The position numbers and the translations under genes were made by a program. This document shows positions 3,973-53,226 of a stretch of DNA of 64,000 nt, piece by piece. The DNA comes from Podaxis mareebaensis (taxonomy: Eukaryota > Basidiomycota > Agaricomycetes > Agaricales > Agaricaceae): assembly GCA_018524725.1 (NCBI GenBank), contig JAEUWP010000316.1, positions 62,001-126,000 on the forward strand, given 5' to 3'. The stretch's first letter is position 1; every line of letters starts with the position of its first letter. The notes beneath the pieces were generated by a model that was given only the letters and a program-made list of their open reading frames with translations, was not told the DNA's origin and ran no database searches.

Positions 3973-5675
3973 ATGACTCACGATAACGCCTTCCGCTCCT
4001 TAACTCGTTATGAGGACTACTATCTCTCTGGCGGTGATCTGTTCTTCCTGGTACGCTGTCATCGTGTCTGATATGATTAAGCGTCTGGCTGATCACATTC
4101 CCGCAGGTTGAGCACCATGTCTTCCGCGTCCACCGATATTTCTTCGAGCGGGAGAGCTCTTACTTTAAGGGCAAGCTTGCAACACCCGCCTCGCCGGGTT
4201 CGTCTCGCCAAGGAACCAATGAAACGAACGCCATCGTGCTAGATGATGTCAAAGTTCACGAATTTGCGCGTTTCCTTTGGGTCTTCTACAACCCGTGAGT
4301 AGCCCGGTTTTCTCGCTCGCCCAAGCCCCGGTTCTGAGCCTTGTCTAGGAAGTACTCCCTCTACCACACCTCCGTCGCTGACTGGGTGTCTATCCTTAAC
4401 CTCGCTCATCGCTGGTCGTTCCCCGAGGTGAAGGCTCTCGCCGTCCGTGAACTGGAGAAACAATCGATGCCCGACATCGATCGTGTTGTCGTTTATCAGG
4501 AGAACGACGTCGACAGGAACCTCCTCATCCCCGTTTATGCTGCGCTTTGCGAGCGCGATGCACCTATTACGCCTGCTGAGGGTCGCCGTCTAGGCATCGA
4601 AACTGCACTCACGATTGCTCAGCTTCGTGAAGTGTCTCGTCGTTCTCCCGTCGATTGTCGTTCACCAGCACCAGCCAACTTCCACGGAAATGAGCTATTT
4701 ACTCTTGTGCGGGAACTGTTTGGGATTGCCCCACCTCCAGAGGATGATACCGCCCCTGAGACACCACTAGGTGGACCGGTGATAACCGTCCTTTAATTTC
4801 TTTTCTACATCATACTGACCATCTCTCTTTTTTTTTTCCTGCAGCCTCCTCCCCTTTGGCTCCCATCACCGGCAACGGCACCGCTGGCCCCACAGCAACA
4901 GCAACCACAACCAACGGCACCACTACGACCAACGAAGGCGCCAGCACAGACGGGCCCGCCACCACGAACGGTCACGCCACCACCGCCAGCAGCACCGGCC
5001 CAAGCACCACTGACACCTCCGCAGGACCCGCCCCCGGTGCCACCGCCAAAACCGGAGCTCCCGCCGGTGCAAACGGGGCGGATGGGGCAGCTCCGCAAGG
5101 GAGCCGACCCGTCTCGCCCGTCAACACCCGCCCCCGAAACTCCGGTAGCGGGGACACCCAACCCGGGCCAAAAGCTGAAGAAACCAAAGAAGGGGACAAA
5201 GAAACAGGAGGAGATGGCCCCGAATGGCTCTCCAATGCCAAGAACCGACGAAAAACAAAGAAGGCCGGTGGCAGCTGAGGAGACGGTGCAGCAGTCACAG
5301 GAGGGGGAAAAGAAGGACGATGGTAACGAGTTGGATGTAGAAAAAAAGGATGAGAACGGTGTTGGATCTTCGCAGGAGGGTTCTGGGGCAGGTTCCTCTG
5401 TGGCCCCTGGTGTTGGTGGTGTGGCGAAGGCGGGTGACGGTAAGGAGGTCTCGACTGCAGATGGTGTTTCCACGGACAATACTGCCACGACTGATGCTCA
5501 AGGTGCTGGCACCAAGATCGAACCGATGGGGACGTCGAGTTCCACAAACCCCTTCAACATCATGTCTCCGACAGCGAAGTCGAAGGGCGTTGTGGTCAAC
5601 AAAAATGACCTCAAGTCCCCCTCGGAGAAGTCTAAGCCAACCAGTTTCTTTGATGATCTTCTCCCCAAGTGGTAG
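3973..5675 (+). CDS. BTB/POZ protein with long proline-rich disordered tail (BTB2)
   Basis: Exons 3973-4050, 4107-4294, 4349-4778 and 4845-5675 join in frame to a 508-aa protein. Resid. 1-26 contain DYYLSGGDLFFL. The BTB core follows (VEHHVFRVHRYFFERES to FARFLWVFYNP), then the helical C-terminal region (WVSILNLAHRWSFPEVKALA). The last exon is unusual: about 276 residues very rich in P, then K/E/T/S (QQQQPQP, KLKKPKKGTKK), ending with a short motif SFFDDLLPKW. Most family members here are 200-340 aa, so this tail is an extension. The frame of exon 4 is fixed by the donor at 4779 (GTGATA) and the pyrimidine-rich acceptor at 4843-4844. Function beyond BTB-mediated dimerisation is unknown. Confidence 0.8.
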
Positions 5676-5890: not shown

Positions 5891-6277
5891 ATGTTTACCA
5901 GCACGTACCTTCCGCATGCCATCTACTCCCTCGCCATAACCTCGATATCCATCCACCTTGTTAGCCAGAAACGCACAATAAGCGATGACAGGGCCCGTGT
6001 TGCAGCGCGTCTGTCAATCCTCGAGTCGGTAGCAAAACAATTGCGGGAGGACAAGAACATTTCACTGGATGAGCTGGACCGGCTTCATCGGTTAGCACGT
6101 CCGCCTGCGCCTTCGGAAGGTAGCGCTTCGCGGGCGAAGGAGGAAATCGGATGGAAGGAGGTCATTTTTGGACAGAAGAGGAGTGTAGAACCTGAGATGA
6201 GCGAGTACGAACGACGGGACTGGGAGCAAGGTGCGTATGATGATTGGGCGGCGTCGGGCACGATAACTTACGCGTAA
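5891..6277 (+). CDS. Small conserved agaricomycete protein, one membrane segment
   Basis: Single-exon 128-aa ORF starting MFTSTYLPHAIYSLAITSIS. The N-terminus is hydrophobic (residues 8-22), suggesting a signal anchor. It is followed by a charged helical stretch (DDRARVAARLSILESVAKQLRED) and an acidic, tryptophan-containing C-terminus (EYERRDWEQG). I recall similar short proteins of unknown function across Agaricomycetes but cannot name a domain. It is convergent with BTB3, with about 80 bp between stop codons. An intronless conserved reading frame of this quality is unlikely to be chance. Confidence 0.7.
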   Translation: MFTSTYLPHAIYSLAITSISIHLVSQKRTISDDRARVAARLSILESVAKQLREDKNISLDELDRLHRLARPPAPSEGSASRAKEEIGWKEVIFGQKRSVEPEMSEYERRDWEQGAYDDWAASGTITYA

Positions 6278-8045: not shown

Positions 8046-8187
8046 AGTTGCAGGTCAGGCCCTATCGTCAAGATGCCAGCAAGAACGTCGTGGATAATTT
8101 GAAACGTACTAGGAATGTGGTCATCTCCATGTAATAATCGTTGTCTCGCTCATATTCTATCCGGGCCTTGGACTCCTCTAAGGTCAT
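7397..8187 (-). CDS. BTB/POZ-domain protein (BTB4)
   Basis: Exons 8187-8110 (26 codons, with NDYYMEMTTFL), 8039-7852 (188 nt, VDSCLFKVPQYYFSRYSD to FQGLLKVMYPL) and 7793-7397 (WISAFKLATMWGFTDIRERA and C-terminus) give 220 aa. Exon lengths 78 and 188 are exactly those of BTB2, which supports the model and the choice of start. The ORF remains open across all three exons. The downstream duplicate of exons 2 and 3 is broken (8940-9965), so this is the functional copy. No accessory domain is present. Confidence 0.8.
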
Positions 8188-8939
8188 CGGGGAAAAGCTG
8201 GTGCAGGAGGTGGGGTTTTGTCTTCCTGCTATGGTTACTTATGAGATTTGATGCTGATGTGTTTGTCTGCCGCGTCTGGCACAATCTGAAGTCGTGACCA
8301 AGACCCGATTACTGCAACGGTGCAGCTATGAGAAGCAGAGCTTGCTACTACTGAACTGACCCGCCTAGCCAGCCCGACCTCGTCGAAGGTGAGACTATAT
8401 GCATTAGAGTCCACGAACGAAATTATTAGGTGCTAAGAACTATCGTTGAGCTGTTATCATGTGGGCAGGGCCACGTGGGGTCGCTCGTTTGACCTTGTTC
8501 TGAAGCAATCTGAAGTCTCAGCCAAGACCATCCTGTGTCGATAAGCCTATGAAGTTGTTGGGTTACATTACGAGAAACATGCCTTTTAGTGGCTCATGTG
8601 TTGGAATTTAGCCACAGAATGTCGCATGTAACAAGTACGAGTAGTGCGATGGTTTATATCCCGCGACCACGTAACCGTCCGCCGGTGGTATATTACAGTA
8701 CATTACAAGCTGGCAGTCCCATGGAAAACGTCAAGGGCAGGAGACCGTGTTGGGACGTACCCCCACTGAGTGAAATGACGACCCCGGGTTCGTCCTCCCG
8801 GTGGCATCATTTACGTCACTTTCGCGCCCATGGACCACTCCTTTGGGTTAAAACTATCGAAACAAACATTGGTTAACATAAATATCAATTTGCGAACGAT
8901 AGGTGATGTAATGTAACCCTGGTTCATGAAATCAAGAGT
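8188..8939. other. Intergenic, no supported gene
   Basis: The sequence lies between BTB4 and the duplicated block. No homology to either repeat unit and no coding pattern were noticed. Confidence 0.5.
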
Positions 8940-9965
8940 TCAAGGGTCGCTTGAACGAGAAATAGAAGTCGGGATCCCACTGTAACTGAACTTCTGTCAT
9001 GGACGGGCAAGTCCATCTTGTGACAAGATGCTTTCACTGTGATGTCGGCTCCTTTAAGCCTCGGAAAGCAAAGCGCCCGGACAATTCTTTCTATGTCCAG
9101 AATATACCGGACCGGCTTTCTTAATATAGACAGAAAGTACAAGGTATATGATCAATACAGATTATCGACCTCGAGGCACTGCGCAGAAGCTCTCCGCAGT
9201 ACTCAGAACATCCTATGAGGTCACAGTTTTCTCTGATACATGGCAGTTGAATCACAGCAAGGGACAGAAAATGCCGCATGTGATGAGAACTGGCGGAACC
9301 ACCAAACGAAGTATAGACTATCTTCAGATCCTGTATCTCATCTTTGAACATTCGTGTATGCTTTCCTCCTCTGCATATTTAACACTAATTCTTTGGGTCG
9401 AAGCCTCAACGCCAGACGAACGCTGACGTGCTCGCACTTTTACCGCCACCGTTTTCCCCCATCGGGGCCCTGTCGAGAGTGAGCGTGCGGGCTCGGCGTG
9501 CGGGCTCGTTATGTCCTGCGATGAGCGAGGACAAGACTCTGCAGTCCTTAGTCCTTCACAAGGACTTGAACTTGGTCGACGGCGCTCATCTTGACAAGAG
9601 AGTTCTTGGATGGCACACTCACGGATATCAGTGAATCCTCACATGTGGCGAGTTTGAGCCCAGAAATCCAGCTAGACAGTGGGAGGTCCTTTGCAGGAGC
9701 TACTGGTTCCCCACGAAAGGTTAGTGGATGCCATGAGCGAAACTAGCCACTTGCGTTGTTCGATGTACAATGGATACAGAACCTTCAAAAGCCCGCGAAA
9801 GTCGGTCCTGCTCACACCCTCAAGTCGGATTGGGTTTGGTCTGTTCTGCCTTCGGGTTTTCCATGGTTCAGGGTGATAATGCGAAAGGGCTGGGAGGTTA
9901 TCGGAGTAACGGGAGAAATAGTACTGAGGAACCTTGAATAAACAACTATCCACCTGGAAACGCGG
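8940..9965 (-). pseudogene. Tandem duplicate of unit A with a dead BTB4 copy
   Basis: The second unit begins with a copy of BTB3 exon 1 (start codon equivalent at 9000) that leads nowhere. It then carries BTB4 exon 2 in good condition (9953-9766, VDSCLFKVPQYYFSRYSD retained). The copy of exon 3 is destroyed: after KLAT the frame shifts and stops follow, although later words such as KMSAVDQ can still be matched in other frames. The first exon of BTB4 is not duplicated in recognisable form, so the unit probably arose already truncated. No intact product is possible. Confidence 0.75.
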
Positions 9966-10640
9966 TCTAAGGCCGGAATATCACTCCTGACGCTCGTAAA
10001 GAGATAACACGGGGCCGTCCGGGAATGACAGTGGGTCATCTCCGATGGTGACAAATTCGACGTTGCCTGTAGTGATCAATGCGAACCGGAACGACTGCAT
10101 AGACTCGCGTCTTATAGGTGATCTACTAATAGCGCTTGCTCTTTGCATAACGATGCCTTTCTCGAAGATATCAACAGAGGGTAACGAGTCACAGCTTATT
10201 AGCAAGGGAACGAGTGCCAGCTTGTTTTCTATCTATGCTGGATACATGCAGGCTGGAGAACTTTATCTTTTACTACGTGGGTTCTCCAGCACAAGCTCGC
10301 ACAGTAAGTGGCCGAACGCCGTCTTTCGATAAAATGTCAAATCAATTTACTCCAAGGGACGAGTATTAGCAACGAAGACGGAGAGGGAATAGTCAACTCT
10401 AGGGCTTGGAAAACAGTATGAAAGTATTGAGTTCTTGGGACATTCATTTAAATACTACATGCATAGATCATCTGTCTGAGACTCAATATCCACCAAGCCA
10501 AACGCACATCGGGAGGCTCCGATGCACACAAGCTCGGCGGCTCTGACCAGACCATAGAAGTGTTAGCTGAAGCTGGAAGGCTGGCCCAGGTTGGTGAAAG
10601 TTGCAGGCACGTCGAGTGGCAGGCCGCTATCTTAGACCTC
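9966..10640. other. Intergenic, no supported gene
   Basis: Short frames on both strands show no family resemblance. Nothing recognisable was seen. Confidence 0.45.
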
Positions 10641-10649
10641 TTCTCATTC

Positions 10650-10740
10650 AGGTTGTTTCGGTTCCGAACCTTTTCTTTGCTTTTGGTCCAACTGGGGCAG
10701 GACTTCGTCGCAGGTAACGTAGTGCAAGATTATGCCCTTA
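10650..10740 (+). promoter_or_regulatory. Upstream block shared by the two 98/99-aa secreted protein genes
   Basis: About 70 bp containing TTTTCTTTGCTTTTGGTCCA and GCAGGTAACGTAGTGCAA recurs, in the same orientation relative to the gene, 220-300 bp upstream of the paralogue at 41168. It recurs again inverted at 41302-41367. Here it lies 160-250 bp upstream of the start codon at 10899. Conservation across about 30 kb suggests a retained promoter element or 5' leader. A small transposed repeat is the alternative. Confidence 0.5.
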
Positions 10741-10898
10741 GGGCAAATCAACCTGGAAGACAACGTCCTAGGCTTCGTTTATTCACCGAATGCACCACAC
10801 AGGCACTTCTTTGAGTGCATTTTAAACTCCAGGAGCTACGAATGTTTCCCCTCAGAACCAGAATTAAATCTACATATCACAGCGTTAGTATCAACGGG

Positions 10899-11309
10899 AT
10901 GAATCTCGCTGCTCTTTCGGCTTTTGCACTCGCCATTACTACCCTCGCAGCCAACTTCAGGGCAAGCTAAACTACTGGAATTAATCAGACTGAGGTTAAC
11001 TGTTGTCGCTATAGGTGTACGAATGCAGTGATGCTTACTGTCTGCGTCTTCAGGGTATCAGTAGCCGTTCGACCTGTTCTTATAGCAACATCGGAGAGAA
11101 TACTCGCACTTTGTGCATCAGCTCTAAAAGCAAAAGCAATGCCGTATTCTCTAGGTGAGCCCAAGACGCTTTCATCGCGCTAAAAATCGCTCATGAATTT
11201 AATGCACTCGATTAGTGATCCCTACTGTAGTGGTTTGCTCCTCTATACGGTTTCTGTTGAGGAGCGTGCGAAGATGAAAGGGGGAGAACGTAACATGAAA
11301 ACTGTCTAG
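10899..11309 (+). CDS. Small secreted cysteine-containing protein, 98 aa (copy 1)
   Basis: Exons 10899-10961, 11015-11154 and 11216-11309 give 98 aa. Exon 1 is a signal peptide (MNLAALSAFALAITTLAANF). Exon 2 encodes VYECSDAYCLRLQG and NIGENTRTLC, exon 3 SDPYC and a charged end. The first intron is GC-AG (GGGCAAGC donor), and the alternative of reading through meets a stop. The paralogue at 40754-41168 has the same three exons (63/143/94 nt against 63/140/94) and identical intron phases, which strongly supports both models. Shared residues include YE, DA, CL, IG and TR around the cysteines. There are five cysteines in the mature part. No known family is recognised; a role outside the cell is inferred from the signal peptide only. 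Confidence 0.7.
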
Positions 11310-37040: not shown

Positions 37041-38102
37041 TCTCAGCTGACGACCAAAGGCACGAGTTGGCCTAATACGGATGAGAAATGGCGTTCAAAG
37101 TCACTGAACTTACCTTCCATCCCACGGACTTTCAAGAACACTATGATTTACGCGTCCTCGTTTTTCGAACATAGTAAGATGTATGTGAAGGTGATCGATG
37201 GGCGCGATTCCAGGTTCATCCCGACCATGCAGACAACGTGTGACGGACGTCACGTCGCCTTGTAGCCGAACGCTTGAGGCCTTGAGGCTTCAGCGCTTCT
37301 TGAAGGACTGCCTCTCGTCCTACCTCCCATCAGACTCGTATCAGGGTACAACCGCCCCGTATGGCGAGGTCGGCTGTCAACGACCCCCCAAATCACTGTC
37401 CCCCCGCGCCCAAATCTATTTTTGACAGCGCGCAGCAGTACCTGCTGTCATGGAAGAAGTCCATGGGTTACCAGTAGTAGGTCCCTTGTGAAACCCTTCG
37501 GGCTTTTGAGGTGGCTCACGTGGCTCGCGGACGAGTCGCTTGCAACTGGTGTGTTGGAACTTAGCACAACTCAGACAACCTCTCCCTAGTCCTCACAGCT
37601 AGTTGTCTAAACCGCTATAGCTTGGTGGAATTCCTCGTTTCTGTCGCTAATGAGAGCCTCCGGTAATCTGTATCTGTGTAATTTGGTGCAGCGATCTGGA
37701 TTATCAGCCTGATTGCCGTGTTGCCGGGCGTTATTTTCGACAGTGCGCGGTAGAGGCGGCAGTCGCTGAAATACCCTTGGATTAGCCCCCCTGTGATCCC
37801 CTGAAGAGACAGAAGTTTGACGAAGGCCGTCTAAGAGGCCAACATCGACCCGGATTCGTCGCGTGCGATGATAGTGCACAAAAAACCTGAGTGGGAATCA
37901 TTTCCGGGATACGATAGTCTATGGCGCTCGAATTGAAGTTGAGGGCGTGTGCGTGGGATGGGGACTACAAAAGGGTAAGCTCTATGGAATCTGTGGAGAT
38001 AAGTGGACCGGTTCATTGCACAGATTGGATCCTATTCTTAACAAGCAGACGATATATACGACGAAATCAAGGTTGCACCCAACCGCTTTCCGTCCTGCAA
38101 GA
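37041..38102. other. Intergenic with a possible integrase scrap
   Basis: Minus 37879-37607 reads RLPEALISDRNEEFHQAI, which resembles the LP..I.SDR..F stretch of Ty3-type integrase. No other catalytic motif is present and the rest of the frame does not align with integrase order. At most a fragment; otherwise empty. Confidence 0.25.
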
Positions 38103-39945
38103 ATGCATTCTACTGGTGCGGAGCAGCGTCTTCTGCGCGATGGGCCTCTATCACCTCCCTCTTACGGGAGTTCAGACGACCACCACCACGACCATCACGA
38201 CCACCACGACCAGAATCATCACCATAATCCTCACTATGGCCATCACTATGGTCATCACTACGGCCACCACCACGGCCACCACCACGGTCACCACCACGGT
38301 CACCACCACGGCCACCACCACAGTCACCACCACGGCCACCACCACGGCCACCACCACGGTCACCACCACAGCCGCCACCACGGTCACCATGGCCACTACT
38401 ATGGGCATTATCATCATCTTCATCGCGAAGTACTCTACATCCCTCATACCCACCCTGTACCAGTAGTTGTACAGCCACAAACTCGCAACACGGTCGTGGT
38501 TACCAGACGGATGCATCGTGCCTTCTTCGGTGCCATCGCCTTCGTAATTACCATATACCTTCTCCTTGGCGCTCTTGCGATGAGCACGTCATGGTCACAG
38601 ACTAGGGTCACGAATACGGGCATGAGAAATCCCAGTGTACGTTCATCCATGAATTCCATGTAATTGACTGACAATCGTCTGCGTTAACAGCAGTGGACCG
38701 TTGTATCAGAGATTAACGGCACAGATTATCTGATTCCACAAGGAATCAATCTAACGTCGTGTGAGAAGTCGTTGAGGTACAGAGGCTCGAGCAGGACGAC
38801 TCTCCAGATCCCTTCATATTCTGATTCTGTTCTCCTGTTGGCGGATGGGCCTTGGCTCCGTGGATCAGTGCGACTGACCAGCACTACGGAACGGACAGAT
38901 TCCATCAAATTTTCCATTAGTCTTTCATCGCAACTTGGCAGGGAGATGAATACTATTGTATGCGCTCTTAAACGAGGGGACGGCGAACAAGGCCTCGGTA
39001 TTTTTGTAAGTGTCCCCGCACTTTTTGATTGGAAATGTGTTGAAATTGAGTATTCCCGTAGAACCCAGTATGGGAGAGGAGACGTGATAGCATCCACTAC
39101 GACGTCGTAGTCACATTCCCAGAGAACCATCCCGTCATTAGGCGCTTCGAATCTCGTACCTCACACTCCGTCTATGAGATCGACGATCTACAAGGCAAAG
39201 TCTTGTTCGAAGCACTGAAGCTAGAAGGTTCAATTGGTAATATTCGCTCCAAGGTGCGCCCAGGTCCTCTACCCAAAGGTTTCTAACCTAAAAGCTTTCA
39301 CAGTCCTTGTTTGCTCGGTGGGCAGATATCAAAGTCTCCGGTGGTCGCATTGATGGATATTTCAATGTCACCAATTACCTCAGGCTTGAGACGTATAACG
39401 GTCAGATCAACGTCGGCATTGATCTCAACCAGGCTCTCTTGGCTACTAGTGCATCCCTCTCGCTGATCACCGCCAATGCGTACGTTCACTACCCAACTAA
39501 GATAATATTATTTTCAACTAACACAACCTCTAGTGCACTTGGAGCCAAGATTCGCCTTCATGACCTTACCTCTCCAAAGGTTGCAATGCCTACGTTTGAC
39601 GTGACAGCCAAAACTTTGAACGGACCGTTGAATATTGTATTTGAAGAAGCTCCAGTCAACTCTAGGCTCTCTCTTCAAGCGGTAACATCTAACTCACCGG
39701 CTGAAGTATCCCTTGATCCGACGTTCGAAGGTCACTTCTTCCTGACTTCGAACATGATCAGTCCAGTGGTTCATCAGCGCTCTGGTACCATGGACCCCTT
39801 GGGTAAGGGAAGAGATCGTGTCTTGAAGTTTAGGAATTTGACGGGGCGTGTCGAGGGTGATGTTGGTTGGGGTAGTGTTTCAAGTACCAGGAAGGGGCAA
39901 GTATATGTGAGCGCAGCGAACGATATGGTGACTATGAATTTGTAA
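38103..39945 (+). CDS. Type II membrane protein, His-repeat N-terminus and DUF7330-like beta-rich ectodomain
   Basis: Exons 38103-38636, 38691-39005, 39062-39253, 39304-39479 and 39534-39945 give 542 aa. Residues 1-25 include GPLSPPSYGSSDD. Residues 26-110 are a His repeat (HHG and HHHGHHHG units, with HYGHHYG). One membrane helix follows at about 139-160 (AFFGAIAFVITIYLLLGALA). The remainder is beta-rich with VVSEINGTDYLIPQG, GDGEQGLGIF, VVVTFPENHPVIRRFE and repeated short strands with N-glycosylation sites. This matches my memory of agaricomycete proteins annotated DUF7330, adhesin-like. The His tract lies on the cytosolic side and could bind Zn or Ni (inference). The last intron is 54 nt and open in frame. 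Confidence 0.75.
38178..38400. repeat. Tandem CAC/CAT-rich repeat encoding His-His-Gly units
   Basis: Imperfect tandem copies of CACCACGGC/T and CACCACGGTCACCAC lie inside the first exon. Frame is kept throughout, so the tract is coding and prone to length change. Confidence 0.85.
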
Positions 39946-40753: not shown

Positions 40754-41168
40754 TTAACTAATTTTCAGGCTACGTTCCTCTCCAATCCGAGCCACACATG
40801 CCCCTGCGGGAATTGGGCCCAGGTATACACCACGACAGCCGATATCACTAATCAGACACACCAAGTTCATGAGTGATTACTAATGTGTTGGAAGAGTCTT
40901 GAGCCCACCTGTAGGCACCAACATGGCCCGTGTCTCCCAGGGTGCCGATTCGATAAGAGCGAGTACTTGCTCCAATATCACCACAAGAACCAGTCGCAAG
41001 TATACGGACAGATATGAGACTCAGACAAGTGGCATCTGCATATTCATACAGCTATAGTAGCAAGAATCAAGCTCAGTTTTGCCTAATTCAAATAGTCCAG
41101 CTCACCCTATAGTCAACTGCAAAGATGGGGGTAGCAAGTGCGAAAGCCAAGAAGGCAGCGAGCTTCAT
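40754..41168 (-). CDS. Small secreted protein, 99 aa (copy 2)
   Basis: Exons 41168-41106 (signal peptide MKLAAFLAFALATPIFA), 41051-40909 and 40847-40754 give 99 aa. Exon sizes (63/143/94) and phases match copy 1 at 10899. Mature sequence begins VDYR, then LYEYADATCLSL, a TGSC word, DIGASTRSY, and in exon 3 SDIGCRG and PAGACVARIGEERS. Compared with copy 1 the first and fourth cysteines of exon 2 are lost and one is gained in exon 3, so disulfide pairing must differ. No recognised family. A shared upstream block lies 220-300 bp before the ATG. Confidence 0.7.
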
Positions 41169-41301
41169 TCTGCTGGTAGTGCTGTGATATGTGGAGTCAA
41201 TTCTGGTTCTGGGGGAAGCATTCGTAGGCTCTGGACTCTTAAATGCATTCAAAGAGGCGCCTATGTGACCCACTCAGTGAATAAATGGAGATTAACTGCT
41301 T

Positions 41302-41465
41302 CAGTTCTAAGCCTTTTCTTTGCTTTTGGTCCACCTCGGGCAGAAGGACTTCACTGTAGGTAATGTGGTTCTTCTCAAACACACAACTTTGCATCACATT
41401 ACCTACGGCGAACTCTTCTGCCCGAGGTGGACCAGAAGCAAAGACAAGGCTCGGAACCGAATAGG
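41302..41465. repeat. Imperfect palindrome built from the shared upstream block
   Basis: The arm 41302-41367 and the arm 41400-41465 are inverted copies of the same roughly 65-bp block (TTTGCTTTTGGTCCACCTCG against the complement of CGAGGTGGACCAGAAGCAAA), about 85 percent alike by eye, with a loop of about 32 bp. The arm at 41400-41465 has the same orientation relative to the 99-aa gene as the block at 10650-10740 has to its gene. Confidence 0.75.
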
Positions 41466-41469
41466 AAGA

Positions 41470-42105
41470 GATTTGTGATAGTGGCCTCCCACTCAGGGTG
41501 CCCATAATCATCACCAACCTGAGCCGAACCATAGGCTAGCACTTCGGTGGTCTAGTCAGAGTTGAGCCTGTGCGCAATGAGTCCTGCCCTCAGGGCCTCT
41601 CAATGTATGCTCGGCTTGATGAATATGGGGTCTCAGACCGATGCTCTCTGCATTTATTGAAGGACTGTCTCAAGAACTCAATACTTTCATACTGGAAAAT
41701 AAGCTGGCGTTGATTCTGCCTTGCTACTAGTTCTTGCCTCATTACCCTCTCTTGATATCTTCTGGAAGAAAAGTACAAGTGCCATTACCTATAAGGCACT
41801 CTGGGCGATCATTCCAACTTACACTACTCACTGTAGACAATGCCGAAAACATCGCCACCAAAGATGAGGGGTTGCCATTCTCGGACGGCCTCACCTAACA
41901 ATATTGCACGGGAAGCCGCAGTTCTGCGCTAGCACTGACTGATAGCTGAGAAAACAACGGCTATCATATTATCAACCAGGCATCTTGTTCGGGTCCTTGG
42001 GCTCCGGGCCCTTGCACGGCTTTTGATGCATACTCACTTCTTCCATTCACCTCAGAATCCCGAGATTCCCATATCACAAGCTGATGTCATATCGACAGCT
42101 ACCAT
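41470..42105. other. Intergenic, no supported gene
   Basis: Separates the 99-aa gene from the first repeat module. Nothing recognisable. Confidence 0.45.
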
Positions 42106-42189
42106 GTCCATCATGCTCCAAGACACGATGACAATTCAAGCAGCATAACGGAACGGTGAGTAAATGCAGATTTGACGTTTTACTAGAAT

Positions 42190-42468
42190 TTAACTTCTCG
42201 CGAATTCACAAGTAGCATCATTAGGTTTAGCAAGGGGGGAAATAGACATCTGGCCGAGCACCAGATACGACATGCAGAGGAAACGAAGTCCTTCTATAAT
42301 TATTCGAATTGCCCAACTCTGGGCTATCAATGTATGGAACACGCTAGAATATGCTGCCCATCTCATCTGACCAGCAAGTATGTACCAGCAGGGTTGCCGC
42401 AAAGAGATGGCCACCAATGCCAAAATGGCGACAACGCCAGAGCCCGTTTCCGTCAGGATGAAGTCCAA
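42190..42468 (-). pseudogene. Membrane-protein fragment in repeat module
   Basis: A 92-aa frame with two hydrophobic segments (GVVAILALVAISL and RIIIEGLRFLCMSYLVLGQM). Parts recur in module B (RRTSFSLHVVSGARPD in a shifted frame) and module A (FILRWIPKLGFRCMSYLVFGEM). It may be the 3' end of a lost multi-span membrane protein gene carried along by the duplication. No start or upstream domain is left. Confidence 0.3.
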
Positions 42469-42944
42469 TAGTCGACGATTCGCGATTTTTTACAGGGTAG
42501 TGGTTTTCTACCGACTCAATGGTAGAAATCAGCGCATTCCAAGGAATAAGCCAGGTATCCACCTCACAAGCCCCTGGAATAATAGGTCATATACTTTGAT
42601 TACACTTTGAGGCTGACTACCAGCAAGCCGAGTGCTGCAACTGGTAAGGAAAGGAAGCAGGCGCGAATATTTATGCCGCGTGATAAATTACGGGAATACC
42701 GGAAATATTGGGAATACGACCCACCGTCCAACGGTCGGCGCCTACCAGCGCGACACCTACTTCGCACCAAACCCCTCCATAATAATATTGTCATTCACAA
42801 CATTTTCCACCCACCCACATCTAATTCAATGGCTACGTGGTGAGGCACCATTCCCATTTCCTCACGTTGTCGTTTGCCAAACTTGCCCATCACACCTAGG
42901 CACTAGACTTACATTGAGGATTGCATAGTCCAGCCGAAATAAGG

Positions 42945-43600
42945 CTATACCTTCACTTTCCCGGTCCACCGTCCATCCCCAGACCTCCTTGCGAACATCA
43001 GGTACGTCTCACGCCCAATGACACCGAGTACGATTCTTTCAAACGACTTTTTAAACCTCGCATCCTCTCCATACCCTCCTTCATGGTAGCGCAAATTTTT
43101 ACTTCCATTTCTGCTTCTGAGTCGACTTAAACTCGGCCGAGAGCTCATGGATGTCTCTGTTTATGAATCCACCATTTTCTGTGGTTGAGTGAGGATATAC
43201 ATTTCGTATGAATGTATCTAGTCTCCGTTGTCGTCACGAAAGACGAGGAGGGACGACATGTGAATAGTGGTCATTGCTTCTACTGGTGATGATACTGCGG
43301 TTGCATGTGTGGCACTGTTGTCCAGCAGGTGATGCGCGAGTTGTATGGAGCATTGACAAACAGTAACTGACTCTTACTACAGCAAGTATCATTCCTTTTT
43401 GTGTGAGAATAAGAAGGAAGGGCGAGAAGGGACACATGTGGAGCATATACTTACCTACTCGCCCAAGGACCCCCTCCAGGACTATTTGCGGATGCGAATT
43501 TATCACTCCAGCCGCACGGCTAACCAGCTCCCTGTGTTCCACCAAAGTCGCTAGTGCACAGTGTAGGCTGGGCTCGGAAGCGAATTTGTCGACGGGCTAT
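42945..43600 (-). pseudogene. PARG-domain pseudogene 1
   Basis: Pieces match the intact gene at 49215-50262 in the right order on the minus strand. The region around 43545-43490 matches the VGVLNFASA..PGGG motif but with a one-base frame break. 43340-43240 reads SPAGQQCHTCNRSI and DHYSHVVPP against CPVGQQFYTYNHSI and DGYYSHAMI. 43090-42950 reads ARFKKSFERIVLGVIGRETY against SRFGRSFERVVFGVIGHETY. Frames are broken and the N-terminal half is not recoverable. It cannot encode an enzyme. Confidence 0.75.
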
Positions 43601-44336
43601 CATGCAATCCCTGTTGTTGATGTCTCTACCGCTCAGGTCCTCGGCTTTGCCACAAGATATGCCCTTTCCGGTTTCGACTTAGGCCAAGAGAAAAGGACAG
43701 AAGCAGGTTTACACCAGAGCGTCTGCATCCGCAAGTTCTCCAGGTTCTTTCGAGGGTCGATTCATCCACTTAGTGTGGAGCGCATTGGCGCGTTTCAAAG
43801 CCTTCATTGTCCTTCGGCAGTCTTCATCCCGGGAGATCTTTATTCCCATTCATAAGGCCGGGAGACGCACCGTGTCAACGACGAAGGCAAAGAACCAGCA
43901 AAGAATTATCGAAGATTGAGCGCTCGTTGTCGGTATCTGCATCATCGGATCAGGTTTCTGTGCCACGTGATGGGTAAGGGGAGAAAGTGAGCAGAGGCGG
44001 AGATTGAATTGCTCAACAAGTGACAAGACACTAGGACGATGTGCTTCCTGGTAATTATTTTATTTCTAGCAAGCTCTTGTCAGTAGTTCAATCGAGCTCA
44101 GTTGAAGGACAGGATTCCATGTTTCAGGCGCCATGTCATTCCTGTTAGCATTCTCAACCTTCTCTCTCATACCGTAGAGCCGTCTGATAAATCAAACAAC
44201 ATAATGTCTTTGATTCACAAAAACAATACAATTACAAAATCCATTTTACTGCTTTCCTTCTTTCTGAATACAACGTCCACTCAATCATCCAAGACTGCCA
44301 ATACAAAGCAAAGTGCCATTTGATTCGGGAAGTTCC

Positions 44337-44534
44337 TCATTGCGGAGTACAACAGGTCCAGCACCCGTTGCTATACGAGGGGAACGAACCCCGTGCGCAG
44401 TCTGGCTTCTCCAAATAGCAAATAAGCAGGCAGACAGGTGGCTTCTTGTACCCGGCCTCAGGCACCGGGTTGGATCTGGTGAGCGCCGTGAGGGCGAAGA
44501 GGACAGTGAATGATGCGAATATCTTCAAGTTCAT
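44337..44534 (-). CDS. Secreted cysteine-rich peptide 1 (CWTCC family)
   Basis: A 65-aa single-exon CDS. A signal peptide of about 21 residues (MNLKIFASFTVLFALTALTR) is followed by the family word NPVP, then C-x3-C-x6-C-x11-C-x2-C-C (VCLLIC, EKPDC, GCWTCC) and the end TPQ. Six cysteines suit three disulfides in a compact secreted peptide. A splice-acceptor-like CTTTCAG sits 9 bp before the ATG, as in the other three copies, pointing to an intron in the 5' leader. The leader's donor is less clear here. A TATA-like TATAAAA lies at 44785-44779. Function unknown; effector, defence peptide and signal are all possible. Confidence 0.75.
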   Translation of the reverse strand: MNLKIFASFTVLFALTALTRSNPVPEAGYKKPPVCLLICYLEKPDCARGSFPSYSNGCWTCCTPQ

Positions 44535-44889
44535 TGTGTACACTGAAAGGATGAGTTGGGTCAGTAAATCGCATGGGAACGGAGTGCCGGAGACGTTTAC
44601 GAGGTGGTATAACGTGCCCCCAACTTTCGGTTCGGGTGTCGACTCAGGTTAAAAACAAGTCTGTCAGAATCCACATGAGTGTTGATATCCAGCAAGGCTT
44701 AGACTTGCTCACTCACGAACGGCTGGTGGATTGAACACCTGGATGTGGGCTTCAAGCTTCATTTAGGCATTCCCCCTGTTTTATAGACCGCCAGGAGAGA
44801 CTTGGTTATGATTTTGTCACCCTGCTGCGGAGATGTCGCGAACTCCTCATCAATCGTGGAGAATCAAAGCCTATTAGGACACCGGTAGG

Positions 44890-45000
44890 CATCTACACAT
44901 GACGCGCAACCAAACCCAGGCTTGAGGACCCAGCGATCAATGAAATACAACGGTCATAATGCGTTGTCCGCGTCATTACCGAAGGGTTAGGCTGTGTACG
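44890..45000 (-). promoter_or_regulatory. Conserved block upstream of peptide 1
   Basis: Words such as CCCAGCGATCAATGAAAT and ACGGTCATAATGCG recur at a similar distance (about 350-460 bp) upstream of peptides 3 and 4. Confidence 0.45.
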
Positions 45001-45376
45001 AAACTGGACATACATTGTCCGAAACAAGCTCTATCTTTTGGCTGGAGGTTGGTGTGAACTTACCATTAACATTCGGCCTCGTAATACAGAATAACTCTTT
45101 CAAAGCACATAAACCTGCACCACACCGTCCACAACCAAGCCCTGTCGCCGTTCGTCCAAGCCCTTGAGTCACACGCCACTAGCTGATGCCGCATTCACAC
45201 CAACTACATGCGTCAAACTCCAAAACACGATAGCATTTCAAGTAGCATAGCTGAACGGTGGCTACATATTTCGACAGATGTCCTGGAATCTCAGCGTCTC
45301 TTGAATTCACAAGGAGCATGGGTTTGACAAAACATGACAAAAACATCAACGGTAGCCTTCCAATCCCTTCCGCAAA

Positions 45377-45574
45377 TTAGGTCTGCGGAGTGCAGCAGGT
45401 CCAGCAATCATCACTACCTCGAGGGAAAGACGGAGGCGTGCAGTTCGGTCTATCACTGTAACAGACAGCCAAGCAAACGACACCTTGGGGCTCCGGGTCC
45501 GGAACAGGGTTGGCGTGAGTAGCTGCCACGAGTGCGGCAAGCACGGTCAAGGGATTCAACAGCTTGAGAATCAT
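45377..45574 (-). CDS. Secreted cysteine-rich peptide 2 (CWTCC family)
   Basis: 65 aa. The signal peptide (MILKLLNPLTVLAALVAATHA) is followed by NPVPDPEP, then the family cysteine frame with the same spacing (VCLAVC, DRPNC, DCWTCC) and the end TPQT. This is the most diverged of the four (RPN for KPD). A leader intron of 53 nt (45636-45584, GTGAGC to TTTCAG) ends 9 bp before the ATG. TATA-like TATAAAAAA lies near 45815. The corresponding gene in module C has been removed. Confidence 0.75.
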   Translation of the reverse strand: MILKLLNPLTVLAALVAATHANPVPDPEPQGVVCLAVCYSDRPNCTPPSFPRGSDDCWTCCTPQT

Positions 45575-45924
45575 GACGAAACACTGAAAGTCACACCTTG
45601 AGAATGCGGATCAGAATGAAGGCATTAGAAGCTCACGGGGAGAGCGTGCAAGGTAGTTCGTTTCTGAATACACGGATACTTGATACAAGAACTGGGGAGG
45701 ATGCGGTTAGCATGAGCAAAACATAAGGTCCGTTGAGCGCTCACCTGAGTTTGTCCTAATGGTGAGATCCTCCGACTTGAGCTTGGTTGGTCGGGGCATC
45801 TCTTCCATTTTTTATACGACCAGGCATAAATCATTATCAACTCCCCTGTTTCCAAGCGGTCCGTGCGCGCACCCACTCGTGCCATCATTACCTGTGGAGA
45901 ATTACAGAGTTGGAGATGATAGGC

Positions 45925-46060
45925 GTCTGGCCGAGCACCAGATACGACATGCAGAGAAAACGAAGTCCTTCTAATAATTAAATTTTCGCAGTCTGAGCTA
46001 TCAATATGTAACGCGCTAGAAGATGCTGCCTCACTCATCTGACCAGCCAGGTTGATGTAA
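45925..46060 (-). promoter_or_regulatory. Conserved block upstream of peptide 2
   Basis: GTCTGGCCGAGCACCAGATA and GACATGCAGAGAAAACGAAG are shared with 42245-42300 (module C, where no peptide gene follows). In part they are shared with 48740-48770 upstream of peptide 4. Confidence 0.5.
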
Positions 46061-46329
46061 TGGGGCTCACAGGAGGATATCCCCAAGCAACGACCGCCGA
46101 TGCCAAGATAGTGACAACGTCAGAGCTTATGCATTAGGTTTTGTAAAATGGAGTCCAGTGTCAGATACATCCCCACAGGACAATGGTCCTCTGCCAACAG
46201 CCGAGTGGTAGAAATCAGTGATTTCCGAGGAAGAAACTGGGTACCAAAAAGCTCCTGGAACAGAACGTTACATAGCTGGATTGCGGCTTGAGGCCGACTA
46301 CCAGCGAGCTGGCTTCATGAGGGTTGGAA

Positions 46330-46640
46330 CTATTGGGATTTCGCCGGTCGGGTTATGGAAACAGCTAGTGAGGTGAAAGACAAGGCTGTATGGACTGCGT
46401 CGTCGTGTTGTGGCGGTAATACGTACGTCGCATGACTCACGGACGGGAATGCACCGGGGTCATCACTCGCCAGGTGTGAACCACGATTGGCACCTGATTG
46501 GAATAGAGCATTAGCGCACGAGCAGTTGGCCTTCCGATAGCAGGCGTCGCTCCTTTGGGCAGCGGGGGCGAAATCTAGCACTCCAACTGTCTCCTTGAGA
46601 TAGCCCCCCAGGAGACCAGAACGAGCCACACCGATAAAGA
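46330..46640 (-). pseudogene. PARG-domain pseudogene 2
   Basis: A minus frame reads KETVGVLDFAPAA, matching AHAVGVLNFASAK of the intact PARG, but the catalytic GGG is gone and later sequence only loosely follows the intact gene. Little more than the motif region remains, so this copy is more deleted than pseudogene 1. Confidence 0.55.
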
Positions 46641-47076
46641 AAGCAAATAATTATCGGGGACGAATACATGGGCGTTTACATTTAGGGCGCCTGGGGAACG
46701 TATCTTGAACATTGGATCATGTTTCTAGGAGGGTACGGAGAAGGCATGAGGCTTGGCAAGCGGCAAGACACTAGGGTACTGTGCTCAACGTTCAATATTC
46801 GATGCCCGCCCTAGTGATTTATCTATGACCAGGTCTTTATAGTTGTCAATCCAATGTTCCCCACTGAGATCGGAGTCCGTAGTTCGGCTTCGTTATCATA
46901 CTTGCTAGTATCCTCAACCTTCACTCGTACCAAATGGCCCTCTAACAAAGCAAAACAGAACACCGTCGATTCACAATTTGGTACAATTACAAATCCATCG
47001 TCACCGCCAAATTTCTTCCCTTACCATGTCCACTCAACCGTCGTATTCGGCGATTACTAGTGAGAAAGCAAGTTCC

Positions 47077-47271
47077 TCATTGCCGAGAGCAACAGGTCCA
47101 ACACCCATCGCCACCCGAGGGGAACCATCCAGGTCGACAGTCCGGCTTTTCCGGATAGCAAATAAGCAAACACGTAGGCGGATCATTTGATTCCGGTTCG
47201 GGCACTGGATTGGCACTGGTAAGCGCTACGAGGACGAAGAGGGCGGTAACCGAGGCGATCTTGAAGTTCAT
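47077..47271 (-). CDS. Secreted cysteine-rich peptide 3 (CWTCC family)
   Basis: 64 aa. The signal peptide (MNFKIASVTALFVLVALTSA) is followed by NPVPEPES, then C-x3-C-x6-C-x11-C-x2-C-C (TCLLIC, EKPDC, GCWTCC) and the end SRQ. A leader intron 47335-47280 (56 nt, GTGAGC to CCCCAG) ends 8 bp before the ATG. TATA-like sequence is near 47526-47530. It sits at the place in module A that corresponds to peptide 1 in module B. Confidence 0.75.
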   Translation of the reverse strand: MNFKIASVTALFVLVALTSANPVPEPESNDPPTCLLICYPEKPDCRPGWFPSGGDGCWTCCSRQ

Positions 47272-47609
47272 TGCGCACGCTGGGGAGATGGGTCGTTCAA
47301 TTGGAATTGAGGAATCAGTGTGATGAGTGGCTCACAATGCTAAATAACGTGTCTTGACGTTCAATTTCAGCGTCGACTCAGATTTGGAGGTGAATTTGGA
47401 GGTGAGTTTGTGGAAAAGCTGTGAGCGTGTCAACGTCTAGCAAGGCTGAACATAACGGAAACCCCTGACCCGCAAATGAACGGAGTATTGCAGACTTGGA
47501 GCTTCATGTAGTGTACCCTCCGTGCTTTATAGACAGCTGCGAAAGATTTTTGTCATGGCTTTGTCACCCCGCTGCGCACATGCCGTGAATATGGGCAGTT
47601 CGTGGAGAA

Positions 47610-47715
47610 TCAAGGTCTGGGACAGCGATAAAGATCTAAATACGACACGCAAGCTTGGGGATTCACAGCTAGGGATATGGAGAACGGCCTCAATACGCTG
47701 TCCGCGTCATCTCCG
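47610..47715 (-). promoter_or_regulatory. Conserved block upstream of peptide 3
   Basis: Shares GTGGAGAATCAA, TACGACACGCAAGCTTGGGG and TGTCCGCGTCAT words with the regions upstream of peptides 1 and 4. Confidence 0.4.
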
Positions 47716-48181
47716 AATAGTTAGTGAGGAAAGGACCCAGAACAATCCCTACCAAGCCGTTGACGGGATCCGCTATTTTGGGCATATCCCATCCAAAGCA
47801 AACCCCGTCCGAGAAGGACGACTTCGTCTTGGCATCTGTTCTCGTAAAGTTTGAGTGTGCGGGTGAAGTAGTGGATGATTGTTGCCGGTTGTATTCGCAA
47901 CAATTTCCATCTCGTATGTTCTAATTCCGGGTGCAACATGTCTCCGCGATCATGTCATAATTATCAGGTTCTTGTCAATCCAACGTTCGCAATTGAAGCA
48001 GGAGCCCTCCGCTCTATCCCGCGTGGTGCTCTCAAGCTTCACACACTCGTGCAGTTCACCGCCGATAATCAAAATCTCCTATTTACAGCCCAACTAATTA
48101 CAAATCGTCACCAGTACTTCCCTCTGTCTCAACATTCATTCAGTCCAACGACCACAGCAGTTAATTCATTAATGCAGCTAT

Positions 48182-48376
48182 TCATTGCGGGGTGCAGCAG
48201 GTCCAGCACCCGCCGCTGTACGAGGGAAACGAGGGGGGTTTGCAGTCGGGCTTCTCCTCAGCGCAAATGAGAAGACAGATAGCGTTAGGGGGGTCGGCGT
48301 TGGGCACCGGATTGGCTCTGGTGAACGCTGCGAGGGCGAAGAGCGCAGTCAATGGGACCAAAGCCTTGATGTTCAT
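48182..48376 (-). CDS. Secreted cysteine-rich peptide 4 (CWTCC family)
   Basis: 64 aa. The signal peptide (MNIKALVPLTALFALAAFTRA) is followed by NPVPNADP, then the family frame (ICLLIC, EKPDC, GCWTCC) and the end TPQ. A leader intron 48447-48388 (60 nt, GTGAGC to GTCAG) ends 11 bp before the ATG. TATA-like sequence is near 48616-48622. Between the third and fourth cysteine it reads KPPSFPSYSGG, close to peptide 1 (ARGSFPSYSNG). The intact PARG gene lies 840 bp upstream in the same direction. Confidence 0.75.
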   Translation of the reverse strand: MNIKALVPLTALFALAAFTRANPVPNADPPNAICLLICAEEKPDCKPPSFPSYSGGCWTCCTPQ

Positions 48377-48724
48377 CGTACGGAAAGCTGACAAGAGGAG
48401 TTAATCTCAATAGATTGAGCATCTCAGAATATGAATCAGCGGCTCACTAGAAAGGGCTATTTCAAGCGATTGTTAACTTAAGACTGCTCGCCTTAAAGTT
48501 TACTTAAAAGATATGTGGATATCAGCGCAACCGAGTTGAGTGAAGTGGAGACGTACCAAATGATAAAGGCAGAGGAATTTCCCAACCTTGACCTCCGTTG
48601 GTGCAACACTCCTCCATTTTATACGCCATGGCAAGTCATATATGTCACTCTTTCGTCAACCTGCTACTGCGCAGGTTCCGTGAACCATCATTGCCCTTGG
48701 GGAACCAAAGTCTAGGCAGTGATA

Positions 48725-48835
48725 GCCATCTCGCCGAAAACTAGGTATGACATGCAGCGAAAGCCAAGCTTGGGGATCCAGCGAAGAATGAAATGCAGAA
48801 CGGTCATAATGCGTGTCAACACCAAGGGTTGAATG
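48725..48835 (-). promoter_or_regulatory. Conserved block upstream of peptide 4
   Basis: GACATGCAGCGAAAGCCAAG, GATCCAGCGAAGAATGAAAT and ACGGTCATAATGCG combine words found upstream of peptides 1, 2 and 3. Confidence 0.45.
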
Positions 48836-49214
48836 GAGAACAGAAAAAGACAAGTTGACATAACCGTGCATCTGACCTCTGAATTGGCGTAATAATTCAT
48901 TGTGTGGAAACGTCTCCCAAGGCCTTCATCGAAGAGGAAAGAGTGTGCCGCAGGGGCTCCAGGGGAGTCGATACTCCGACATTATTTCCATCATTCTCCG
49001 CATATACGACCGGGTGCAGTGTTTTAGATAATAACTGTACTCTACACCAGATTCATAGAAAACACGGGGGTGAGCAAAAGATTAACTCGAAGTTAACTGG
49101 TGATCAGACCGAGGGTGGTGGAGTTGGTTTTAGGTTGGTGGATATGGATCATATTTTGCGGAGGTGAGTCCAATAGCGTTGCGACACAATCATCTCCTTC
49201 CCTCGGACAAGCGT

Positions 49215-50262
49215 CTATCCGGCGGCCGTCCCAAACTTCTCCGCAAATTTGACATATGTTTCATGCCCAATAACGCCAAACACAACCCGCTCAAATGATC
49301 TCCCAAACCTGGAATCTTCACCTACCAATAGTTCAGCCCATAAGTCCACCACCATATTGACACTGTTCTTGAACACGCCTGTTCCAAAACTTCCTAATGC
49401 TAAATTCCGTACACCCTGCAGTTCGAAGAGGTACAAGAGCCTTCCCATACGCTCTTTCATAGTGGCACGAATCTTTAGTTCCATGTCTATTTCAGAATCG
49501 ACCTCTTGTAATCGATCGAGGGCTTGTTTGCGTTTTTGTCGCACGACGCCAGCATTGACAGCAGGAGACGTAAGAACGTCGATCTCGTATGGGCGGACCC
49601 AGCCCCCACTATCGTTCCGGAAAACGATGACCGAAGGGCTATAGATCATGGCGTGCGAGTAGTACCCATCGTTCTTGCCATTCGTAATTGAATGGTTGTA
49701 CGTATAGAACTGTTGGCCGACTGGGCATGTGAGACTCGGATAGAGTGTCGATGAACGAGCTATCGATTCTTCCTGTGGCAAAGCGTTTTGAGAAGAAAAC
49801 TATAGAAGGCGACGTGCATACACTCACCTGTGCTTGAGACCCAGTCAAAAACCCTCCTCCCGGCTTCTTTGCGGACGCGAAATTGAGCACGCCAACTGCG
49901 TGAGCCCGGCCCCTTCGCTCTTCATTCGCGCCATCCACCGGGGCCTGATTTGATTTAGTGGTGAGTTCGTTAACGAGCCAACGCGCCGCTTCCAGGGTCG
50001 ATTTCTCTACCGCCCATATCTTGGATTCTGGTACGAGACGCGCCTCCCTCGGCATGGACTGAGCCCATGAAGAGATAGAAGAGTTGGGTCCATAGTAGAG
50101 CGTGTGTGCTTTCAGACCTTCCACGTTGGCACGAAGATCGAATATTTCAACAGGGTCGTTCTGTTTACCTTCTGGCTTGTGGAGGGAATATGAGCCTCTC
50201 TCGATAGCATCCAGACTCCCTTCGGCGATTTTCTTGAGGGTATCTCGAGTAATGCCGGGCAT
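49215..50262 (-). CDS. Microbial-type poly(ADP-ribose) glycohydrolase (PARG, TIGR02452/DUF2263 type)
   Basis: Exons 50262-49828 and 49772-49215 give 330 aa. The catalytic macrodomain motif is clear: GVLNFASAKKPGGGFLTGSQ followed across the intron by AQEESIARSSTLYPSL. The GGG loop and the QEE glutamates bind and hydrolyse ADP-ribose polymers in bacterial-type PARGs. Later parts fit the fold: YYSHAMIYSPSVIVFR, VLTSPAVNAG, LALGSFGTGVFKN and SFERVVFGVIGH. No signal peptide, so probably nuclear or cytosolic, reversing ADP-ribosylation. It is the intact parent of the two pseudogenes at 42.9 and 46.3 kb. Minus strand, like the neighbouring peptide genes; no sign of co-transcription. Confidence 0.88.
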
Positions 50263-52122: not shown

Positions 52123-53148
52123 CGTTAGTCGCAGCTTGTGATGGTGTCGGTGAAAGGGTGGAGGACGGCGTTTGGTGGGCCTCGCGCCGAGGGCCTCCAC
52201 ATAACCCTACTGACTCGTTGATCAATCAAGCAAACATCAACTGGTAGATGCAACCATCAGAAAGTAATAATTTTAGAACTTCAATTTCACACCTGGACTT
52301 TTTATGGCGTACTTTTAGACACTTTCAACAAGCAGAATCAATTTCAGTTTCAGACCTGAGTCACGATGCTTCATACCTCCAACTGGTAACCTGACCCGGC
52401 CTACGAAAAGTGCTGGTGGAGCACGACAAGCTCATAGTCATGTAGGTGGAGTACTGAATTTCGGACTGCGGAGAGCACGAGGGGATGGATCTCAGGCTCA
52501 GGTTAATATACGCGTACTGCTCTCAGGCCTTCCTTCCTATACTCGCATCAAACGGTAGCATTCATCGTGAGGGAGGTGATGCTCATTTTCCAACGTTTTA
52601 CCTATCGAACGGTGATCGGGTACATGCTCCTCTCTTTTGATCCCAAGGACGGGAGGATAGTTCAGGCAGCCTTGTTCGCAAGATGATGGATGCCGTGTTT
52701 GCTTCAACTCCTCCGCCCCAGATCATTGAATGGCACATATCTCCAGGGGGGGGTTTATGATAATGTTGGATGTCTGTATGCTTCACGTGCCTGTTCCTTG
52801 AGAGCTGGTCTGGACGAGGTGGAAACCTCACCTCATTATGCCCTTACCTTCGGGAAAATCTCTCGCAGTTCTCTATCCTCGTGAGATACCGTTATTCAAC
52901 CAAGCTTGCGATTGAAAACCAATATTCGAAGGCATAAAGCTGAATCTCACCTCGTCAGTTGTCGCCCCAGATTATGCGGCCGAACTCCTCGGTTGATTGC
53001 CTCCTGGTACTGCCGAAGCTGAAATCATTGAATCTTGGCAGAGGTGGCGGAAATTCTCCCTTCCGGTAATGCTCTCATTTTGAAGCACAGGGAGCTGAAG
53101 AATAATCTTATGTTCGAGCAAAAAAGAGCATGTCAAAGAGGCCCTAAT
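52123..53148. other. Intergenic, no supported gene
   Basis: Contains the promoter of the polytopic membrane protein gene. Small frames on both strands are not convincing. Confidence 0.5.
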
Positions 53149-53226
53149 GCATCAAGGGGGAATCGAACCCCCGGCGGGTCGAGACACCAATGGCAACGAC
53201 CCAGGTTACCACTACCCCATTGATGC
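53149..53226 (-). tRNA. tRNA-Gly (anticodon GCC) with 8-nt intron
   Basis: On the minus strand the acceptor arms GCATCAA and TTGATGC pair perfectly. The D arm reads GGGTAGTGGTAACCT. The anticodon stem GGTCG/CGACC encloses TTGCCA, an 8-nt insertion TTGGTGTC, and T. The T arm is GGGGG TTCGATT CCCCC. The insertion starts one base after the anticodon, the canonical place for a nuclear tRNA intron. Box A (TGGGGTAGTGG) and box B (GGTTCGATTCC) are intact. Confidence 0.93.

What the first reader, a model, noticed from the sequence alone, without database searches (positions are those of the whole stretch)
42110..50262. Interleaved array of PARG-type macrodomain genes and secreted six-cysteine peptides
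Three modules lie head to tail. Module A holds an intact PARG plus two peptide genes, module B a PARG remnant plus two peptide genes, and module C a PARG remnant with the peptide lost. Distances between parts are conserved (about 437 bp from each PARG remnant to the next peptide stop). An ADP-ribose hydrolase repeatedly linked to secreted cysteine-rich peptides is, as far as I know, not a described association. It may be simple hitch-hiking, or a functional pair under local selection. All peptide copies are open while the PARG copies decay, so selection seems to favour peptide number.
Basis: partly seen in the sequence, partly recalled or inferred. Interest (0 to 1): 0.8.

Follow-up and report, generated by a model that had tools for sequence, protein, structure and literature searches.

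The report
Tandem array of mushroom secreted peptides
In a gilled mushroom, four genes for small, probably secreted cysteine-rich peptides sit in a locally duplicated stretch of DNA together with one intact and at least one decayed copy of an ADP-ribose-removing enzyme gene; the enzyme looks like a passenger, while the peptides belong to a larger family that seems not to be catalogued.

Summary
Observation largely right, interpretation mostly not. The window comes from an agaric fungus (probably Agaricaceae). Four intact peptide genes lie on the minus strand (C-x3-C-x6-C-x11-CWTCC, hydrophobic N-terminus). All four share a TATA box 242-260 bp upstream and a predicted 53-60 bp 5'UTR intron. One intact microbial-type PARG and one clear PARG pseudogene lie among them. 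The best-supported unit is a two-copy tandem, peptide-PARG-peptide (47.75-45.16 and 45.03-42.06 kb); the last copy has no peptide in the collinear place. The intact PARG shares no detectable flank with either unit, so "three equal modules" is too neat. PARG "B" rests mainly on position. But elsewhere in this genome the peptide family (38 domains in the window and sampled loci, one to four per protein) was found without a PARG nearby, and the second PARG has no CWxCC site within 45 kb. Best reading: birth-and-death tandem duplication of secreted-peptide genes, with PARG hitch-hiking. The broader CWxCC domain matched no Pfam family above its cut-off and no solved structure here; that is the more interesting part.

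The parts
49828..50262 (-). PARG A exon 1 (microbial-type PARG, PF10021), intact
49215..49772 (-). PARG A exon 2 with stop; 55-bp intron 49773-49827; spliced 330 aa with GGG-x7-QEE
   Evidence: motif named in PMC7050489
48182..48376 (-). pep1, six-Cys CWTCC peptide, 64 aa
48388..48447 (-). predicted 60-bp 5'UTR intron of pep1; TATA box starts 247 bp before ATG
47077..47271 (-). pep2, 64 aa
47280..47335 (-). predicted 56-bp 5'UTR intron of pep2; TATA box 260 bp before ATG
46310..46608 (-). place of PARG B, almost wholly lost; one 60-column PARG-like piece at 46549-46608
   Evidence: weak alone (reached by 2 of 1000 shuffles); matching flanks on both sides
45377..45574 (-). pep3, 65 aa, the divergent copy; best score among 9 compared peptides is M. 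fuliginosa P0122
45584..45636 (-). predicted 53-bp 5'UTR intron of pep3; TATA box 242 bp before ATG
44337..44534 (-). pep4, 65 aa
44543..44600 (-). predicted 58-bp 5'UTR intron of pep4; TATA box 251 bp before ATG
42965..43825 (-). PARG C pseudogene with stops and a frame change
42056..42628 (-). flank relic of a pep3-type gene; no coding part between the two matching flanks
45158..47751 (.). duplication unit 1: pep2 - PARG B relic - pep3
42056..45033 (.). duplication unit 2: pep4 - PARG C pseudogene - missing peptide
52400..52501 (+). possible further PARG fragment, opposite strand, tentative
   Evidence: nucleotide score 48 vs shuffle max 40; tblastn E 0.006 against this small piece, 0.10 against the window

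Best explanation
A birth-and-death tandem array of genes for secreted, disulfide-rich peptides. A peptide-PARG-peptide segment of about 2.6-3 kb was duplicated head to tail beside an older intact PARG and one more peptide gene; surplus PARG copies decayed, one peptide copy was lost from its place, and four peptide genes were kept under purifying selection, each with its own TATA-like promoter and predicted 5'UTR intron. Shown by sequence: duplicated flanks, intact peptide frames, decay of PARG C, absence of the last peptide from its collinear place. Inferred: the precursors enter the secretory pathway, lose a roughly 20-residue signal peptide before NPVP, fold with up to three disulfides and act outside the hypha (effector-like, antimicrobial or inhibitor; not decided), so duplication changes peptide dose or variety. 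PARG has no visible signal sequence and is expected to hydrolyse poly-ADP-ribose inside the cell; it is a passenger of the duplication.
For: Flank homology of the two units with shuffle controls. Four open peptides with six invariant Cys. dN/dS 0.24-0.38 over the whole coding sequence for the 3 of 6 pairs where dS could be computed; 0.17-0.23 over the mature part of the same pairs. A simple neutral simulation gives 3.7% and 2.4% chance per lineage of keeping frame and all six Cys at 12.5% and 14% divergence. TATA box and 5'UTR intron in the same place in 4 of 4. PARG decay. The peptide family occurs on several contigs without a PARG hit; PARG was listed only on C382 and C130.
Against: pep1 3' flank homology is marginal (54 vs max 49; 52 vs max 38), and pep3's 5' flank does not match pep4's (33 vs max 36), nor its 3' flank those of pep1, pep2 or pep4. 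In the signal-peptide part dN/dS of the same three pairs is 0.44, 0.74 and 1.01, so there is little constraint there, and dS is saturated for all three whole-length pairs with pep3. A rearranged trace of the lost peptide is possible. No expression data; the extracellular role is inferred.
Confidence: 0.77

Rival explanations
1. Functional pair: the intracellular PARG and the secreted peptides belong to one stress or defence programme and are kept together by selection.
Against: Other members of the peptide family lie on contigs with no PARG hit; the C130 PARG has no CWxCC site within 45 kb, and no CWTCC peptide was found in L029-L031 around the PARG remnant at C382:148 kb; PARG copies decay while peptides stay.
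Confidence: 0.08
2. The array is moved or amplified by a mobile element, with PARG and peptides as cargo.
For: A diverged inverted copy of the neighbouring stretch 41017-41890 lies at 10.0-11.0 kb, and 41300-41461 is a near-palindrome.
Against: In the own genome that stretch was found only on this contig apart from one 210-bp match on C109 (lower bound); the units are simple head-to-tail tandems. No dedicated search for transposases was made.
Confidence: 0.06
3. Chance duplication without selection: unequal exchange among small genes, with PARG pieces as older background; the peptides stay open by luck.
For: PARG A flanks are unrelated to the B and C flanks; small genes can stay open by chance; the signal-peptide part shows little constraint.
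Against: Low dN/dS in the mature part and low neutral survival; conserved TATA and intron positions.
Confidence: 0.08

Closest known systems
Agaricus bisporus 'small cysteine-rich protein' (P0121, P0125)
   Same: 61% and 56% identity to pep1 over its whole length, same six-Cys CWTCC pattern, NPLP or NPSP after the hydrophobic part; both listed with a contig of 2,368,395 bp
   Different: PARG P0004 is listed on a contig of another length (2,277,079 bp); whether it is a neighbour could not be tested
Macrolepiota fuliginosa P691DRAFT_675897 (P0122) with PARGs P691DRAFT_805801 and 777663
   Same: Peptide is pep3's best score (62%); all three listed with a contig of 43,110 bp
   Different: Both PARGs are full-length gene models there; only one peptide of this family was found with that contig length
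Microbial-type PARG (DUF2263, PF10021, TIGR02452)
   Same: PF10021 hit in both exons and GGG-x7-QEE
   Different: Nothing unusual seen in the intact gene
Fungal small secreted cysteine-rich proteins / effector-like SSPs
   Same: Short, hydrophobic N-terminus, Cys-rich, tandem duplicated
   Different: The Cys pattern differs from hydrophobins (C-CC-C-C-CC-C) and HFS proteins as printed in PMC8596622 (passages seen)

Membership tests
Microbial-type PARG (PF10021) | Match to PF10021 above the gathering score | tested here: met
   53.8 and 52.9 bits against a cut-off of 23.5 for the ORFs of the two exons
Microbial-type PARG (PF10021) | GGGx6-8QEE catalytic motif | tested here: met
   GGG-FLTGSQA-QEE across the exon junction; motif as printed in PMC7050489, passages seen
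Microbial-type PARG (PF10021) | Poly-ADP-ribose hydrolysis | not testable with these tools
   needs an enzyme assay
Small secreted cysteine-rich proteins | Short with conserved Cys pattern | tested here: met
   64-65 aa; six Cys invariant in A1 and in 38 family domains (these were picked by a pattern that demands the six Cys)
Small secreted cysteine-rich proteins | Signal peptide and secretion | tested here: inconclusive
   hydrophobic N-terminus ending before NPVP is visible in all four; no signal-peptide program or secretome data was available
Hydrophobins | Eight Cys, C-CC-C-C-CC-C | tested here: not met
   six Cys, C-C-C-C-CC
Any Pfam-A family | Match to a curated model above its cut-off | tested here: not met
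   38 domains gave only six families with one member each, best E 0.018; 0 families for 9 whole proteins; pep4 had one sub-threshold hit, PF24153, E 0.019, 15.6 bits against a cut-off of 27
Solved folds (PDB) | Sequence or fold match | tested here: inconclusive

The most novel reading that the evidence does not exclude
The PARG-peptide linkage is a selected, ancient functional neighbourhood in Agaricaceae: an intracellular ADP-ribose hydrolase and secreted CWTCC peptides serve one defence or stress programme, and the CWxCC domain is an undescribed modular secreted domain (one to four repeats) shared by basidiomycetes and some ascomycetes.
Probability: 0.08. Interest if true: 0.6.

Novelty: new member of a known kind. 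Interest (0 to 1): 0.36.

Why it matters
It shows how a secreted-peptide array grows and loses parts, with an unrelated enzyme gene carried along and decaying. More generally, the C-x3-C-x6-C-x11-CWxCC domain recurs in this genome as single, double, triple and quadruple repeats, has relatives in Agaricus, Macrolepiota, Amanita, Trematosphaeria and Aspergillus and, more weakly (E 0.014), Suillus, and has no Pfam match above a cut-off here; naming it would let such mushroom small secreted proteins be classified and tested.

Tried and rejected
Text searches for CWGCC and CWTCC listed papers that by title are unrelated to these peptides (20 of 88 and 20 of 25 listed). Searches for agaric or basidiomycete small cysteine-rich proteins listed no paper whose title or abstract start names this motif; only listings were seen, apart from passages of the four papers opened. 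A maximum-likelihood tree of 10 peptides had 0 of 7 inner branches supported, so orthology of pep3 with the M. fuliginosa peptide rests on best score only. Assigning PARG C to the P0003 lineage was tried: per-piece identity leans that way (33 and 35% against 28 and 29% for PARG A), but summed bits put P0001 first; left open. A 5'UTR intron just before the ATG as a mark of the whole family was not borne out: 7 of 20 other family genes show such a signal, above the 8.6% of 2000 random places but not general (a similar, not identical, test to that, where 4 of 4 array genes have it). An antistasin-like inhibitor was considered because of a recalled CPxG...GCxxC resemblance; the Pfam scan of 38 domains listed no antistasin match. 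Fold searches gave no relative.
Full report
Origin. The window is G000:C382:62001-126000 of a 36.95-Mb, 429-contig genome. It reads as an agaric fungus: the PARG's best named relatives are Macrolepiota fuliginosa (73%), Agaricus bisporus (62%) and Leucocoprinus (63% over 71% of the query).

Observation. On the minus strand, from high to low coordinates: intact PARG A (50262-49828 and 49772-49215), pep1 (48376-48182), pep2 (47271-47077), a place where a PARG B has nearly vanished (46608-46310), pep3 (45574-45377), pep4 (44534-44337), PARG C pseudogene (about 43825-42965) and the flanks of a missing peptide (42628-42056). PARG A matches PF10021 in both exons, has GGG-x7-QEE, and aligns over 99% with P0001. 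PARG C is clear (192 against a maximum of 42 in 200 shuffles). PARG B is weak alone (41; maximum 44 in 200 shuffles; reached by 2 of 1000).

Duplication history. Self-BLAST, global alignments (42-45 kb against 45-47.8 kb scores 433.5, three shuffles 5.5-8.0) and local alignments with 200 shuffles each show that 47751-45158 and 45033-42056 are tandem copies of one peptide-PARG-peptide unit. Against the pep1-PARG A stretch the global alignments of both units paired only the pep1 part. pep1 shares its 5' flank with pep2, pep3 and pep4 (89, 104, 135; maxima 38-42), its 3' flank only marginally with pep4 and pep2; pep3's flanks do not match pep4's, nor its 3' flank those of pep1 and pep2. PARG A shares coding but no detectable flanking sequence with PARG C, and none with the PARG B flanks. 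So three equal modules must be changed to one two-copy tandem plus an older PARG and a related peptide gene beside it. In the last copy both flanks match and the collinear place between them holds no peptide, but a 51-column match to pep3 at 41911-41958, reached by 2 of 1000 shuffles, lies out of order, so rearrangement rather than clean deletion is possible.

The peptides. Six Cys are invariant: C-x3-C-x6-C-x11-C-W-T-C-C. All four have a TATA box 242-260 bp before the ATG and a predicted intron of 53-60 bp ending 8-11 bp before the ATG. Whole-CDS dN/dS is 0.24, 0.29 and 0.38 for the three pairs among pep1, pep2 and pep4 (0.17, 0.17, 0.23 for the mature part; 0.44, 0.74, 1.01 for the signal part); for the three pairs with pep3 whole-length dS is saturated. 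With random substitution at 12.5 or 14% per lineage, 3.7 or 2.4% of 20,000 simulated copies keep both the frame and all six Cys (no indels modelled, which favours neutrality). The mature peptides are therefore being kept, while PARG copies are not.

Is PARG part of a pair? In the own genome PF10021 or the window PARG lists only the window gene and its pseudogene C, a decayed copy at C382:148238-148703, and a second gene on C130 (only best candidates are scored). The CWTCC pattern has 29 sites against 5 for the reversed control, 19 of these 29 lie in open frames with the six-Cys spacing: 4 in the window, 3 at C382:40-42 kb, 4 on C104 (two double-domain genes), 5 on C202, and one each on C5, C68 and C111; the other 10 do not. 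The looser CWxCC pattern has 206 sites against 122 for the control (only the first places, contigs C1 to C197, were listed). On C5 there are proteins with three or four domains ending in CWGCC, and a two-domain one ending in CWNCC and CYTCC; C5 domains are linked to pep1 by E-values down to 2.3e-6. In all, 38 distinct domains were found in the window and 21 sampled loci; the loci were chosen for motif hits or position, so this is not a genome count. Outside the window no PARG hit lies near any of these. No such peptide was found in L029-L031 (C382:130-160 kb), around the decayed PARG at 148 kb, and C130 shows one CWxCC site, about 45.5 kb from its PARG. That they share one contig is inferred from the equal length. 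The most economical reading is old neighbours that are duplicated together.

How it works. Inferred: secreted, disulfide-stabilised peptides that act outside the cell; the array changes dose and variety. AlphaFold gives a small model with three strands (39 residues, pLDDT 85, pTM 0.51) without a PDB relative. No function is shown. PARG A most likely does ordinary intracellular PAR hydrolysis, as described for DUF2263 enzymes in PMC7050489 (passages seen); [quoted passage not shown] Small secreted proteins are discussed as effector-like also in saprotrophs in PMC7105643 (passages seen).

Comparison with what is known. The peptides are of the kind of fungal small secreted cysteine-rich proteins; an A. 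bisporus relative already carries the name small cysteine-rich protein. No Pfam model covers them above its cut-off. Relatives reach ascomycetes (Trematosphaeria pertusa, two domains; Aspergillus sydowii). I did not find a description of the family or of the PARG association in the listings, which cover only the open library.

Verdict. A real, well-kept array with an ordinary explanation; the CWxCC family is the part worth following.

Noticed in passing
L041:5686-6384, L042:5335-5892, L043:4480-4947 and 2403-2987 (contig C5): Secreted-looking proteins with three or four tandem CWGCC six-Cys domains, distant relatives of the window peptides; no Pfam match for the three of these four that were scanned.
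   Followed up: partly
L033 (C382:36001-46000): 4340-4549, 5375-5599, 6063-6260: A second cluster of three CWTCC peptide genes on the same contig, more than 60 kb from the array and without a PARG hit.
   Followed up: partly
L036:5647-6066, 8065-8454, 9472-9813 and L048:4708-5328: CWTCC domains followed by long Gly/Ser/Thr-rich tails, unlike the short window peptides.
   Followed up: no
window 41017-41890 and 10013-11049: Diverged inverted copies (64% over 768 columns) about 30 kb apart, with a near-palindrome at 41300-41461; one further short match on C109.
   Followed up: partly
G000:C382:148238-148703 (+): A further decayed PARG copy 36 kb beyond the array, with two stops.
   Followed up: partly
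window 52400-52501 (+): Possible PARG fragment on the opposite strand, weak.
   Followed up: partly
window 53148-53226 (-): tRNA-Gly (gcc) predicted by ARAGORN.
   Followed up: no
window 37947-38663 (+): ORF with a long His-rich GHHH repeat region.
   Followed up: no
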